From a virus: a stretch of 43,536 nucleotides of DNA. Below are positions 27,699-43,536 of the stretch, piece after piece. Position 1 is the stretch's first letter; each line of letters starts with the position of its first letter. Where the stretch lies: positions 1-43,536 of the IMG/VR virus record IMGVR_UViG_3300045965_000089. The stretch is one strand, 5' to 3'. Below the pieces are notes generated by a model. It was not told where the DNA came from, searched no databases, and was given only the letters and a program-made list of their open reading frames with translations. A program made the position numbers and the translations under genes.

Positions 27699-28052
27699 CT
27701 ATTTCGCCTTACGCCGCTTGGCCGGGATGGGGCCCGCCGGCGCCGCGCGGGCGAGCGTTGCGCCCATGCGCGTCTGCCAGCCGGGGCCGGAGGCGCGGTA
27801 CCAATCGAGCACGCGCCGCGGCAGCCGCAGCGTCACCTGCACCTTGCGCTCGGCTTCCGCCACCGGCGGCCGGCCGCCGCGCCGCAGCTTGCGCATCAGC
27901 GCGAACTCGGCATCGGTGAGCGGCGGATTATCGGGATCGGCCTTCGCCGCCGCCGTGATCTCGGCGTCGGTCATCGCATCGAGCCGCCGCTTTTCCGCGC
28001 GCGTCAATTTGAACTTGCGCGCCTCTTCAAGCGTCATGCGAACCGTCGGCAT
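27699..28052 (-). CDS. BrnA-like antitoxin without a neighbouring toxin
   Basis: 117 residues. The acidic DPDNPPLTDAEFALMRKLRR (about 39-58) and the ribbon-helix-helix part VTLRLPRRVLDWYRASGPGW with QTRM (73-96) are the two marks of BrnA-family antitoxins. These normally bind a BrnT RNase and repress their own promoter. No BrnT-like gene lies next to it: the neighbours are a coiled-coil protein and a membrane protein. It may neutralise a host toxin, or work only as a repressor. It is the middle gene of a - strand cassette with its own promoter. Confidence 0.75.
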   Translation of the reverse strand: MPTVRMTLEEARKFKLTRAEKRRLDAMTDAEITAAAKADPDNPPLTDAEFALMRKLRRGGRPPVAEAERKVQVTLRLPRRVLDWYRASGPGWQTRMGATLARAAPAGPIPAKRRKAK

Positions 28053-29735: not shown

Positions 29736-29915
29736 GAGTGAGCCGTTGTTCGTGAGAGAACCGAAGTTCCAGAGCGAGCCGCAGACTTCGAGAGGACCGT
29801 CGGTGATGAGTGAGCCATCGCAGGCGAGAGCACCGTCAAGAGCGAGCGAGCCGGTTGATCAGAGTGAACCGTTCGAAGTGAGCGAGCCGTATGTGCTGAG
29901 AGAACCGACATGTGG
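29736..29915 (+). repeat. 18-bp phased repeat array 1 (10 units plus a partial unit)
   Basis: Ten units of exactly 18 bp, each a conserved 10-base core and a free 8-base linker. Cores alternate between S type (GAGYGAGCCG) and R type (GAGAGAACCG, with variants GAGAGGACCG, GAGAGCACCG and GAGTGAACCG). There is no insertion or deletion over 180 bases. A partial eleventh S unit, GAGCGGCC, runs straight into the ATG at 29924, and its GGGAG serves as ribosome-binding site. The same element, three times longer, follows that gene. It is not recognised as a known repeat class. Confidence 0.9.
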
Positions 29916-29923
29916 GAGCGGCC

Positions 29924-30721
29924 ATGACCTATCTCGACCAGGAAGCCGTGCAGCGTCTGTCGAAAGACCTGCGCGAGGCGGCGCGCACGCTGTCCGACCA
30001 GGAGGTTCGCTTCCTGGTCGACGGCTACTACTCGATGCAGAAACAGCGCATCGTGCAGGACAACCGCCGCCGCGCCATGGCGGACGAGCCGCATGCCGTG
30101 CTCGACTGGTTTTCCAGCAACGCCATGTTCATGGAGAACCAGGTCAAGGCGGCGCTCGACCGCTACTCGAGCGCGCATCCGATGGGCGCATGGACGCGCG
30201 GCATCGTCGGCATCGGCCCGGTGATCGCGGCCGGCCTGCTGGCGCATATCGACATCAAGGCCGCGCCGACGGTCGGCCACATCTGGCGCTTCGCCGGCCT
30301 CGATCCGACGCTGAAATGGGGCAAGGGCCAGAAGCGGCCATACAACGCCGGCTTGAAGGTCTTGTGCTGGAAGCTGGGCGAGAGCTTCAAGAAATTCTCC
30401 GGGCACGAGGGCTGCGTCTATGGCCACCTTTACCTGCAGCGCAAGCGGTACGAGATCGCGCGCGATCAGCGCGGCGAGCATGCGGAGCTGTGCAAGTCCG
30501 ATCTCGCGGCGCGCGGGCCGCGGATGACGGCGGAGCAGCGCGCGCACTACGAGCGCGGGCGCCTGCCGCCCGGCCGGCTCGACCTGCGGGCGACGCGCTA
30601 TGCGGTCAAGCAGTTCTTGTCCGATCTACATGGCGAGTGGTATCGCCACGAGTACGGCAGGGAGCCGCCGCTGCCGTATCCGATCGCCATTCTCGGCCAC
30701 GCGCATGTGCGCAGGCCGTGA
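29924..30721 (+). CDS. IS110/IS116-like helix-hairpin-helix protein between the two arrays
   Basis: 265 residues from ATG 29924. Residues 92-108 (RGIVGIGPVIAAGLLAH) are a helix-hairpin-helix. Together with FAGLDP (123-128) they resemble the C-terminal domain of IS110/IS116 family transposases. The N-terminal DEDD catalytic domain of those enzymes is absent; the first 90 residues are plain helix. It is therefore a DNA-binding relative, not a transposase. Being enclosed by two arrays of the same 18-bp repeat makes it the first candidate for a protein that binds or maintains them; this is inference. Confidence 0.7.
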   Translation: MTYLDQEAVQRLSKDLREAARTLSDQEVRFLVDGYYSMQKQRIVQDNRRRAMADEPHAVLDWFSSNAMFMENQVKAALDRYSSAHPMGAWTRGIVGIGPVIAAGLLAHIDIKAAPTVGHIWRFAGLDPTLKWGKGQKRPYNAGLKVLCWKLGESFKKFSGHEGCVYGHLYLQRKRYEIARDQRGEHAELCKSDLAARGPRMTAEQRAHYERGRLPPGRLDLRATRYAVKQFLSDLHGEWYRHEYGREPPLPYPIAILGHAHVRRP

Positions 30722-30735
30722 AGGCCGGGGGGTTT

Positions 30736-31257
30736 GAGAGGACCGAACAGCGCGAGCGAGCCGAACCTCTAGAGCGCACCGTGAAGTGAAAGCGAGCCGA
30801 TATTCGCGAGAGAACCGTCAAGCTAGAGCGAGCCGCCATTCGCGAGAGAACCGTCAAGCTAGAGCGAGCCGCCATTCGCGAGAGAACCGTCAAGCTAGAG
30901 CGAGCCGCCCGTCGTGAGAGAACCGTCGAGCTAGAGCGAGCCGAGACGAGTGAGAGAACCGAGATAACTGAGCGAGCCGGTGCTACAGAGCGAACTGTTG
31001 CAAAGGAGCGAGCCGTCAACCGCGAGAGAACCGTGTTGAGAGAGCGAGCCGAAACCACTGAGAGTACCGAATCGTCGGAGCGAGCCTAGCGGTCGGAGAG
31101 AACGGTGTAACGAGAGCGAGCCGTTGCAGGCAAGAGAACCGACATGCCGGAGCGAGCCGTTCCTGGAGAGTGAACCGGACGACGGGAGCGAGCCGTGCGA
31201 CTTGAGAGAACCGCATTGCCGGAGCGAGCCGTTCCTGGAGAGAGAACCGACCTGCCG
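30736..31257 (+). repeat. 18-bp phased repeat array 2 (29 units plus a partial unit)
   Basis: Twenty-nine 18-bp units in perfect register, again alternating R (GAGAGAACCG) and S (GAGCGAGCCG) cores without exception, with variable 8-base linkers. A 36-bp R+S pair is repeated exactly at 30808 and 30844, and nearly so at 30880. The pair of linkers TTCCTGGA recurs at 31150 and 31222. A thirtieth, partial unit (GAGCGATCCGC) ends at the ATG at 31269 with GGAG in ribosome-binding position. The SEP frame contains at least six stops, so the array as a whole is not one protein repeat. Confidence 0.9.
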
Positions 31258-31268
31258 GAGCGATCCGC

Positions 31269-31805
31269 ATGAGCAAGCCGCAAGCCCTCCCCGACCGCCG
31301 CGCATCGCCGCCCTACAACGCCGACGTCGCCACGATCGAGGCCGACGATCCCTACGAGCCGGGCGGGCGCATCCTTGCGCTCGCCTCGCTGCGCGACGAT
31401 CCGCTCGGCCGGCTGTTCCGCCGCGGCCACATCGACCAGGCGCAATACGCCGCCGGCCGGCATGTGCAGGAACTGTTCGAGCTCGCCGATATCGGCCGCG
31501 TCGGCGCGGTCGACACCACGCAGACGCCGGTCGACGGCGGCGCCGTGGCGGTCTCCACGATCGGCGACCGGGTATGCTGGGCAATGGCCGAGTTGCGCAA
31601 GCTGCGCGCCGAGATCGGGCCGCGCCGGTTCTTCCTGCTGCGCGACGTGCTCGCCGAGCGGATGTTCCTCTACCAGGCCGGCGTCAGGCGCGGCTACGCG
31701 AGCGAGCGGCAGCTCAAGGTGTTCGCCGAGCAGTTCCGGCTGGCGCTGGAGCTCGCAGCTATTGCGCTCGGCTACGCCTCGATTGCACCAATGGATTTTT
31801 CATGA
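31269..31805 (+). CDS. Conserved regulator-like protein
   Basis: 178 residues from ATG 31269. The part DPLGRLFRRGHIDQAQYAAG (about residues 44-63) and the later FFLLRDVLAERMFLYQAGVR with YASERQLKVF (about 120-155) recall DUF6456-like proteins of Rhizobiales, where the second region is a probable helix-turn-helix. As the last sizeable gene before the early-region terminator, it could be the late activator or antiterminator, but that is inference from place. The last repeat of array 2 supplies its ribosome-binding site. Confidence 0.55.
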   Translation: MSKPQALPDRRASPPYNADVATIEADDPYEPGGRILALASLRDDPLGRLFRRGHIDQAQYAAGRHVQELFELADIGRVGAVDTTQTPVDGGAVAVSTIGDRVCWAMAELRKLRAEIGPRRFFLLRDVLAERMFLYQAGVRRGYASERQLKVFAEQFRLALELAAIALGYASIAPMDFS

Positions 31806-31897: not shown

Positions 31898-31945
31898 CGG
31901 CGTCGGGTAAGTGGAGGTAAAAACGCCAAGATGCAGTTCTATGGC

Positions 31946-31971
31946 CCTCGCGTTTCCGCGGGGGTTTTTTG
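31946..31971 (+). terminator. Strong intrinsic terminator of the early rightward operon
   Basis: CCCTCGCG, loop TTTC, CGCGGGGG (8 pairs, one of them T-G), then six T. It separates the early region from the late packaging genes. The stretch 31898-32091 otherwise holds no gene. It should contain the late promoter, though I see no clear consensus. Confidence 0.85.
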
Positions 31972-38912: not shown

Positions 38913-39419
38913 ATGGCAGTCGTTACGGTAAAATCCACACAGATCTCGAACCGCGATGCCACGCCGGTGGTCTTGAGCTCCGGCGCGCTCACGGGCGCCA
39001 ACGTCAAGGAAAGCGTCGGCACCGTCGCCATCGCGTCCGGCGACAGCATCGCCTCAAAGTACCTGATCTGCGAAGTGCCCTCGAATGCCGTCATCAAGCA
39101 TGTTGGCATCGATGCGCCCGACATCGGCACCACGACGGCCGGCGATCTCGGGCTGTACCAGACCACGCAGAACGGCGGGGCTGCGGCCGACGCCGATCTG
39201 TTCTGCTCAGGCTTAGCGCTCGGCTCGGCGGCGATCGTTGCCGCCACCAATCAGATGTACGAGTCTGGCGTCTATACCGTCGCCACCTCGACGCAGGCGG
39301 TGTGGCAGAAGCTCGGGCTCGCGTCCGATCCTGGCCGCAACTACGACGTGGTGCTCACGCTCACTGCGGCGGCCGACGCCGCCGGCACGATCGCCGTGTC
39401 GGTCAAGTACACGCAGTAA
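38913..39419 (+). CDS. Head accessory or decoration protein
   Basis: 168 residues, beta-rich, Ala/Thr/Gly/Ser-rich, with repeated short strands such as VTVKSTQIS and TIAVSVKYT. AGGAGG precedes the ATG at 38913. Small beta-rich proteins encoded directly after the capsid gene are often capsid decoration or head-fibre proteins. It is followed by a run of three hairpin terminators, so it is the last gene of the head transcript. Confidence 0.6.
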   Translation: MAVVTVKSTQISNRDATPVVLSSGALTGANVKESVGTVAIASGDSIASKYLICEVPSNAVIKHVGIDAPDIGTTTAGDLGLYQTTQNGGAAADADLFCSGLALGSAAIVAATNQMYESGVYTVATSTQAVWQKLGLASDPGRNYDVVLTLTAAADAAGTIAVSVKYTQ

Positions 39420-39429
39420 ACGTCAAGAC

Positions 39430-39446
39430 GGGCGTAAACGCCCTTT
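39430..39446 (+). terminator. Hairpin terminator 1 of 3
   Basis: GGGCG, loop TAAA, CGCCC, then TTT. Short stem; weak alone, but part of a series. Confidence 0.5.
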
Positions 39447-39461
39447 CGTTAACGTCAAGAC

Positions 39462-39477
39462 GGGCGCAACGCCCTTT
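39462..39477 (+). terminator. Hairpin terminator 2 of 3
   Basis: GGGCG, loop CAA, CGCCC, then TTT; the tandem copy of the first. Confidence 0.5.
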
Positions 39478-39493
39478 CGTTAGTGCCAGACTG

Positions 39494-41991: not shown

Positions 41992-43536
41992 ATGGCTCGT
42001 CAGTATGGGATCTGGACGCAGTTTAACGGTGGAGAATATTCGCCGGCTATTGATGGTCGTGTAGATCAAGAAAAATATTTTACGGGGGCGAAGGTCCTCG
42101 AGAACTTCATCCCGACGGTGCCGGGCCCGGCGGTGCGGCGCGGCGGGACCCGCTTCGTCGCCGAGGTGAAGGATCAAAGCAAGCGCACTTGGCTGTCGAC
42201 GTTCCAGTTCAACGAGGAGCAGAGCTACATCGTCGAATGGGGCGAGAACTATCTGCGCCTGTTCGTCAACCGCGCACCGCTGCTCACCGGCGGCGCGCCG
42301 CTCGAAGTGGCGACGCCGTATGCGGAAGCCGACCTGATCGCGGCGGCGGGCACCTTCGCATTGCAGACCGTGCAGTCGGCCGACGTGCTGTTCGTGGTCT
42401 CGGTCAAGGGCGACCAGCAGCCGCGGCAATTGCGGCGCATGGGCGCGACCGACTGGACGTTCCCGGTCTACGACAATCTGGAGGGGCCGTTCCACGACCT
42501 GCGCAGCGACGAGGCGATCACGCTGGCCGCCTCAGCCGCGACCGGCGCGATCACGCTCACCGCCTCGGCGGCGCTGTTTTCCGACGATGACATCGGCAAG
42601 CTGGTCTATCTCGAACCGGAGAACCTCGCCGCCGTCGGCTCCTGGCAACCCGGGCTCGGCGTCGGGGGGGGCGACATCGACGTCGTCCCCAGACGCAACG
42701 CCGGCAACATCTACCTGTGCCGAGGGCCGATCACTGGCGCGACCGGCGCGGCGCCGCCGATCCACGATCGCGGCATCGGCAACGACGGCGTCATCGATTG
42801 GGAATATCTGCATTCCAACTACGGCATCGTGCAGATCGAAGCCATCGCCTCGGCGACGGTCGCCAATTGCACGGTGCTCAAGCGGCTGCCGGACGAGAGC
42901 GCAACCTATGCGCAAGCCGGCGTCGTCGCCAATCCGACCAAGTGGTGGGCGTTCGAGGCCTGGTCGGACGCGGAAGGCTGGCCGACCACGGCCGCGCTCT
43001 ACAAGGAAAGGCTATTTTTCGGCAAGGGCCGCACCATCTACGCCAGCCAAGTCGGCGACTTCTTCAGCCACAACCGCAAGATCGGACCCGACTTCACGCC
43101 GGATGCGGCGATGGTGCTGGCGATGGCGACCGAGAGCGTCGACGAAATCCGCTGGATGATGCCGATCGCCAACGCGCTCGCCGTCGGCACCGCCGGCTCG
43201 GAGGTGATCGTCGCCGGCGCGACCGAGAACCAGCCGTTCTCATCGACCAACGCCACCGCCGTGGTGATGACCGGCGTCGGCTCGCAGCGCCTGCAGGCGA
43301 TCCGCATCGGCAACGTGGCGCTGTTCGTGCAGCGGCACGGCCGCAAGATCCACGAATACCGCTTCGCGCTGGAGGAGGACCGCTACGTCGCGCCCGACCT
43401 CACGATCCTCGCTGACCACATGCTCACGAACGGCGTCATCGACTACTGCTACCAGCAGGAGCCGGATTCGATCCTGTGGGTGGCGACGGGGGCAGGCGAA
43501 TTGCATGCGCTCACCCACAACCGCGACCGCGGCGTG
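41992..43536 (+). CDS. Tail nozzle (tail tubular protein B, T7 gp12-like), N-terminal part
   Basis: The first 515 codons of the nozzle gene, running off the window end and continuing in the gene fragment at 3-932. Early family marks are QFNGGEYSPAIDGRVDQEKY and FIPTVPGPAVRRGGTRFV (about residues 11-56), followed by beta-rich sequence. In the virion, six copies form the tail tip. The first 90 bases use AT-ending codons, unlike the rest of the gene and its neighbours. No start other than ATG 41992 fits. Confidence 0.88.
   Translation, partial: MARQYGIWTQFNGGEYSPAIDGRVDQEKYFTGAKVLENFIPTVPGPAVRRGGTRFVAEVKDQSKRTWLSTFQFNEEQSYIVEWGENYLRLFVNRAPLLTGGAPLEVATPYAEADLIAAAGTFALQTVQSADVLFVVSVKGDQQPRQLRRMGATDWTFPVYDNLEGPFHDLRSDEAITLAASAATGAITLTASAALFSDDDIGKLVYLEPENLAAVGSWQPGLGVGGGDIDVVPRRNAGNIYLCRGPITGATGAAPPIHDRGIGNDGVIDWEYLHSNYGIVQIEAIASATVANCTVLKRLPDESATYAQAGVVANPTKWWAFEAWSDAEGWPTTAALYKERLFFGKGRTIYASQVGDFFSHNRKIGPDFTPDAAMVLAMATESVDEIRWMMPIANALAVGTAGSEVIVAGATENQPFSSTNATAVVMTGVGSQRLQAIRIGNVALFVQRHGRKIHEYRFALEEDRYVAPDLTILADHMLTNGVIDYCYQQEPDSILWVATGAGELHALTHNRDRGV
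43313..43536. repeat. Right copy of the near-identical terminal overlap
   Basis: Matches 1-224 with nine mismatches. Seven are synonymous or paired within a codon; two codons change the protein (Leu for Ile, Thr for Ala). Same frame in both copies. Confidence 0.9.

What the first reader, a model, noticed from the sequence alone, without database searches (positions are those of the whole stretch)
29736..31268. Two arrays of a strictly phased 18-bp repeat with alternating cores and free linkers
About 39 full units (10 in 29736-29915, 29 in 30736-31257) keep an exact 18-bp step with no insertion or deletion. Each unit is a 10-base core plus an 8-base linker. Two core types, GAGCGAGCCG (S) and GAGAGAACCG (R), alternate without exception, so the true period is 36 bp. 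Linkers vary almost freely while cores stay, which points to selection on the core and on spacing. Core and linker are too short for CRISPR, and the alternation is unlike ordinary iterons. Possible roles: an origin or partition site, a cooperative binding track for the HhH protein between the arrays, or a translation-related leader. I know no described family of this form.
Basis: seen in the sequence. Interest (0 to 1): 0.92.

Follow-up and report, generated by a model that had tools for sequence, protein, structure and literature searches.

The report
TIGR guide-RNA arrays around phage tasA
The strange repeats are two arrays of short guide RNAs (a TIGR-Tas system, a kind of RNA-guided DNA-binding machine first described in 2025) flanking its TasA protein gene in an uncultured tailed phage: a clear new member of a known kind, whose guides change very fast between close relatives and whose targets remain unknown.

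Summary
Two cores, GAGCGAGCCG and GAGAGAACCG, alternate every 18 bp at 29736-29925 and 30718-31267 (longest chain 30 units; at most 2 in shuffles). It is not an unknown element. It is a TIGR dual-repeat array: edge repeat, 8-nt spacer A, loop repeat, 8-nt spacer B, a 36-nt unit. The 'HhH protein' between the arrays (29924-30721, 265 aa) is a nuclease-less TasA (Nop domain); its best sequence and fold matches among solved structures are TasR and TasH. A DNA-pattern scan of IMG/VR found 39 array stretches, most encoding this protein; conversely 75 of 80 protein relatives have such arrays. The published TIGR phage Salicola CGphi29 carries nearly the same repeats. Edge-repeat positions 3:8 and 4:7 show compensatory changes, as expected of RNA. 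The window encodes about 20 tigRNAs. Most likely mechanism: TasA dimers loaded with 36-nt tigRNAs bind, and probably bend, DNA matching A and B on opposite strands, without cutting. Spacers turn over fast (0 of 14 shared with a relative 89% identical over 12 kb). No target was identified. New member of a known kind.

The parts
29736..29925 (+). TIGR array 1: five edge-spacerA-loop-spacerB units (edges at 29736, 29772, 29808, 29844, 29880) and a 3'-truncated edge repeat (29916) that runs into the start codon of tasA
29924..30721 (+). tasA: 265-aa nuclease-less Nop-domain protein (TIGR-associated protein A)
   Evidence: phmmer to TasR 9mty 2e-8 and TasH 3e-8; profile 7e-23 and 2e-13; Foldseek of AF2 model to TasH/TasR 5e-7; homologues in most array contigs
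30718..31267 (+). TIGR array 2: fifteen units (edges every 36 bp from a 5'-truncated edge at 30718 to 31222) and a 3'-truncated edge at 31258 that abuts the start codon (31269) of the next gene
30790..30933 (+). four successive units with related spacers (ATATTCGC/TCAAGCTA; CCATTCGC/TCAAGCTA twice; CCCGTCGT/TCGAGCTA): a likely amplification of whole 36-bp units
31269..31805 (+). downstream gene of unknown function (PHROG 21451), whose start codon follows the last edge repeat
31943..31966 (+). terminator-like hairpin with T-run; candidate end of the transcript through both arrays (weak: 2 found, 3.8 expected by chance)

Best explanation
This is a TIGR-Tas system of the TasA type in a temperate tailed phage. 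The two dual-repeat arrays are transcribed in the direction of tasA and matured into about 20 tigRNAs of 36 nt, each half edge - spacer A (8 nt) - loop repeat - spacer B (8 nt) - half edge. GAGCGAGCCG is the edge repeat and GAGAGAACCG the loop repeat. A TasA dimer holds one tigRNA by the box D-like (GAG) and box C-like (CCG) ends of both repeats. It binds double-stranded DNA in which spacer A pairs with one strand and spacer B with the other. Having no nuclease domain, it would bind and bend rather than cut. The likeliest use is interference with competing mobile elements, or regulation of host or phage genes, without cleavage. Shown here: array anatomy, co-occurrence with TasA, Tas fold, RNA-type covariation, fast spacer turnover. 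Inferred from the characterised systems: transcription, 36-nt processing, tandem-strand targeting, DNA bending. Unknown: targets and benefit.
For: A pattern scan chosen from DNA alone recovers 39 viral stretches, and most of these contigs encode a homologue of the protein beside the arrays. A protein profile finds 367 viral relatives, and 75 of the best 80 carry tandem arrays, nearly always with a 36-bp lag. The protein matches TasR 9mty and TasH by sequence and fold. Salicola phage CGphi29, the published TasH/SpTIGR phage (PMC12045711), has AAGCGAGCCA-N8-AAGACAACCA arrays after its Tas gene. Edge repeats of relatives change G3:C8 to A:U or U:A and C4:G7 to U:A, U:G or A:U, while loop repeats keep A4 and mostly A7: the extra edge pair and A-rich loop described for TasR. 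Related arrays share A+B spacers as one unit: 151 of 202 shared A spacers keep the same following B, 105 of 197 the same preceding B.
Against: No RNA data. No target found: exact tandem matches were no commoner than in control orientations, and three whole-collection guide scans gave only scattered hits. Unlike typical TIGR arrays, no rho-independent terminator directly follows; the last edge abuts the next gene. The covariation scan used the 3:8 and 4:7 pairs in its scoring or sorting, although the unbiased folds show several of the same variant repeats.
Confidence: 0.95

Rival explanations
1. The arrays are DNA sites (iterons or a centromere) bound directly by the protein between them, serving replication or partition.
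For: Phased repeats in direct orientation next to a gene for a nucleic-acid-binding protein. Some TasA loci are in operons with ParB-like genes (PMC12045711).
Against: Edge repeats vary by compensatory base-pair changes at 3:8 and 4:7, which fits RNA and not a DNA site; spacers change completely between close relatives while units stay whole; the protein is a Tas/Nop RNA-binding fold; arrays can exceed 60 units.
Confidence: 0.03
2. The arrays are low-complexity coding sequence (hexapeptide repeats such as SEPxxxREPxxx).
For: 18 bp is a multiple of three and array 1 has one open forward frame.
Against: Array 2 has 4-8 stops in every forward frame; relatives have 17- and 19-bp steps that shift the frame; the core difference at position 7 is synonymous in the SEP/REP frame (GAG/GAA), so a protein would not fix its alternation.
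Confidence: 0.01
3. A transposase (IS110-like, as PHROG 4285 names it) with its bridge-RNA or target repeats.
For: Weak Transposase_20 match and PHROG 4285 'transposase'; IS621 is the next-best fold.
Against: No DEDD catalytic domain in the 265 aa; TasR/TasH match better by sequence and fold; alternating dual-spacer arrays are not an IS110 feature.
Confidence: 0.01

Closest known systems
TIGR-TasH of Salicola phage CGphi29 (SpTIGR; PMC12045711)
   Same: 18-bp step, 10-nt repeats and 8-nt spacers, 36-nt unit; edge AAGCGAGCCA is 8/10 identical to GAGCGAGCCG; array beside the tas gene; same Nop fold
   Different: The Salicola protein has an N-terminal HNH nuclease; its array ends in a terminator hairpin; repeats end in CCA, here CCG
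TIGR-TasR of a Thermoproteota archaeon (TaTIGR; PDB 9mty)
   Same: Best profile match in the PDB (7e-23); Nop domain; dual repeats with box D and box C ends; extra covarying pair in the edge repeat and A-rich loop repeat
   Different: TasR carries a RuvC nuclease; 9-nt spacers; UG/CCA boxes
TasA of Flavonifractor plautii (FpTIGR; PMC12045711)
   Same: Solo Nop protein without nuclease, dual-repeat array
   Different: 9-nt spacers (18 nt per tigRNA) in FpTIGR; its sequence was not compared here
IS110 family (IS621) with bridge RNA
   Same: Shares the Nop-like/Transposase_20 RNA-binding domain
   Different: DEDD recombinase, single bridge RNA, no arrays
CRISPR arrays
   Same: Repeats separated by variable guides, turnover of units
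   Different: Here two alternating 10-nt repeats, 8-nt spacers, no cas genes seen

Membership tests
TIGR-Tas (dual-repeat type) | Two distinct alternating 8-12-nt repeats separated by short variable spacers (mostly 9 nt; 8 in SpTIGR), 36-nt unit | tested here: met
   10-nt cores, 8-nt spacers, 36-bp unit; Salicola array read directly
TIGR-Tas (dual-repeat type) | Nop-domain Tas protein encoded next to the array | tested here: met
TIGR-Tas (dual-repeat type) | Box D and box C ends covary between edge and loop repeats; edge has an extra covarying base pair, loop is A-rich | tested here: met
   CCG/CCG here, CCA/CCA in most other relatives; edge pairs 3:8 and 4:7 change with compensation; loop A4 and mostly A7
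[quoted passage not shown]
   degenerate edges at 30718 (5' end of array 2), 29916 and 31258 (3' ends); array 1 begins with a full edge repeat
TIGR-Tas (dual-repeat type) | Rho-independent terminator after the array (typical, not obligatory) | tested here: not met
   no terminator directly after either array; roughly half of the family's arrays run into a start codon (rough criterion)
TIGR-Tas (dual-repeat type) | Processing into 36-nt tigRNAs bound by Tas | not testable with these tools
   needs small-RNA sequencing
TIGR-Tas (dual-repeat type) | Tandem-strand DNA targeting by spacers A and B | tested here: inconclusive
   no enrichment of tandem matches over control orientations; guide scans scattered
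TasA subtype | Nop domain without HNH or RuvC domain | tested here: met
   265 aa; all-helical model, no nuclease domain matched
IS110 transposon | N-terminal DEDD catalytic domain | tested here: not met
   only Transposase_20 matched, just below cutoff; model has no RuvC-like sheet
CRISPR array | One repeat of about 25-36 nt with spacers of similar size and cas genes | tested here: not met
   10-nt alternating repeats, 8-nt spacers

The most novel reading that the evidence does not exclude
In this phage family TIGR arrays are an actively renewed memory or arsenal. Whole edge-A-loop-B units are gained, lost, duplicated and replaced far faster than the neighbouring genes diverge, which implies an unknown acquisition or diversification route and fast-changing targets (rival phages or host loci) that are bound, not cut, by TasA.
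Probability: 0.3. Interest if true: 0.8.

Novelty: new member of a known kind. Interest (0 to 1): 0.5.

Why it matters
The finding is settled as a TIGR-Tas locus, and it opens a large comparative set: 367 viral relatives, many with long arrays, some of them close relatives that differ in their spacers. The discovery paper names natural targets, the role of nuclease-less TasA and the way arrays grow as open questions. Pairs such as the window and L187 (89% identical, no shared spacer) or L009 and L020 (96% identical, 9 of 15 shared) make array growth directly testable, and suggest that the heritable unit is the whole dual-spacer tigRNA.

Tried and rejected
Target search with spacer A followed by the reverse complement of B (gap 0-2): no excess over control orientations or the wrong register, in own and relatives' DNA (the array contigs; 2.0 Mb). 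Whole IMG/VR scans of one duplicated window guide (23 stretches) and two guides of relatives (9 and 34): hits scattered, no homology of the hit contigs to TIGR phages. Genome contigs pattern hits were not examined one by one; most look like chance matches in coding DNA. L040, a short MAG contig with array-like matches at both ends, encodes no Tas protein in the searched ORFs. Host: not identified; structural genes match known phages only weakly and diversely. Rfam: no match. Coding-repeat, iteron and IS110 readings rejected as described.

Full report
The observation. Reading the sequence and scanning it confirms two arrays on the + strand with an exact 18-bp step: 10 units and a truncated one at 29736-29925, and 29 units with truncated ends at 30718-31267. 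The two cores alternate by parity. Shuffled windows never give a chain longer than 2, against 30 in the real one. Core letters vary in some units, so 'without exception' applies to core position 7 and to the register, not to every letter.

What it is. A pattern of three units with either core, chosen from DNA alone, found 39 stretches in 2.9 million viral contigs. In 40 contigs neighbouring units alternate 1189 times and fail 28 times. Most core positions are 90-99% conserved and spacers are nearly random. Most of these contigs encode a homologue of the window's 29924-30721 protein next to the arrays, although the scan did not use the protein; those without it are mostly short stretches cut near the array. 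Going the other way, a profile of that protein found 367 viral relatives, and 75 of the best 80 carry tandem arrays, nearly always with a 36-bp lag, mostly close to the gene.

The protein. The best PDB sequence matches are TIGR-TasR (9mty) and TasH (21kl and others), at 2e-8 and 3e-8 alone and 7e-23 and 2e-13 with the family profile, followed by IS621. An AlphaFold2 model (pLDDT 84) matches TasH-tigRNA and TIGR-TasR structures first (5e-7), then IS621. No nuclease domain is present, so it is a TasA. PHROG 4285 calls this family 'transposase' and Pfam gives a sub-threshold Transposase_20 match; both reflect the domain shared with IS110.

The array as RNA. In Faure et al. 2025 (PMC12045711; [quoted passage not shown] In TasR arrays, edge repeats have an extra covarying pair and loop repeats an A-rich tetraloop. 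Here GAGCGAGCCG has pairs G3:C8 and C4:G7, and GAGAGAACCG keeps only G3:C8. Relatives have edges GATCGAGACA, GAACGAGTCA, GAATGAATCA, GAGTGAACCA and GAGAGATCCA: both pairs change with compensation. Caveat: the scan used these pairs in scoring and sorting, but the unbiased folding shows several of the same variants. The final G or A of the box C end changes in edge and loop together (CCG or CCA) in most loci. Salicola phage CGphi29, a published TIGR phage, has AAGCGAGCCA-N8-AAGACAACCA arrays just after its Tas gene. This makes the identification firm.

Window inventory. Array 1 encodes five tigRNAs and array 2 fifteen. Units 8-11 are near-copies, pointing to growth by duplication of whole units. 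The last edge repeat of each array runs directly into the start codon of the next gene (tasA at 29924; 31269), with no terminator between. About half of the arrays in the family do likewise under a rough criterion, whereas published arrays typically end in a terminator.

Evolution. L187 is 88.8% identical to the window over 12 kb, yet none of 14 spacers is shared; L009 and L020 are 96% identical and share 9 of 15. Aligned arrays show whole A+B units retained amid wholesale replacement, internal insertion and relocation. A shared A spacer keeps its following B in 151 of 202 cases and its preceding B in 105 of 197, which supports GAGCGAGCCG as the edge repeat; these counts pool related pairs and are not independent events. 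Spacer GC follows genome GC only partly (slope 0.56, mean 0.49 against 0.57).

Targets. From the published cut geometry (8-nt 3' overhangs) I deduced that one target strand reads spacer A, then the reverse complement of spacer B, with a gap of 0-2. Exact matches in the array contigs and in 2.0 Mb of local DNA were no more frequent than in control orientations. Three IMG/VR scans with single guides gave scattered hits unrelated to TIGR phages. The power is low, so this is inconclusive, but there is no sign of self-targeting in the window.

Verdict. A new TasA-type TIGR-Tas locus in a temperate phage (integrase, Bet-like annealing protein, replication initiator and terminase genes). Mechanism by membership: RNA-guided, tandem-strand DNA binding without cutting. 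What the phage gains is unknown; interference with rival elements or gene regulation are the leading guesses, both also raised in the discovery paper.

Noticed in passing
L107:2911-3990 (Microcystis phage Mvi-JY20, PP438412.1): Unannotated TIGR-Tas system in a cyanophage record: tasA-like gene (hypothetical protein XAI95461.1), a dual-repeat array (ATGCGAGCC / ACGAAACCC) and a terminator hairpin, just upstream of a terminase gene.
   Followed up: partly
29924-30721: PHROG 4285 labels this Tas family 'transposase, integration and excision'; this is probably a misleading annotation inherited from the IS110 domain.
   Followed up: yes
1-224 and 43313-43536: The window ends are 215/224 identical, and a near-identical contig (L185) continues from the window's end into its start: the record looks like a complete, terminally redundant or circular genome.
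   Followed up: partly
27699-28052: BrnA-like antitoxin gene on the minus strand, next to a small minus-strand ORF.
   Followed up: no
39419-39482: Two copies of a 32-bp tandem repeat just after a structural gene.
   Followed up: no
L013, L024, L039 arrays: Three related arrays share their 3'-terminal units but differ more on the 5' side; this hints at polarity of unit gain and was not tested statistically.
   Followed up: partly
L111, L119: TasA relatives on contigs whose IMG numbers (2522125054, 2900685891) look like isolate genomes; these could reveal a host.
   Followed up: no
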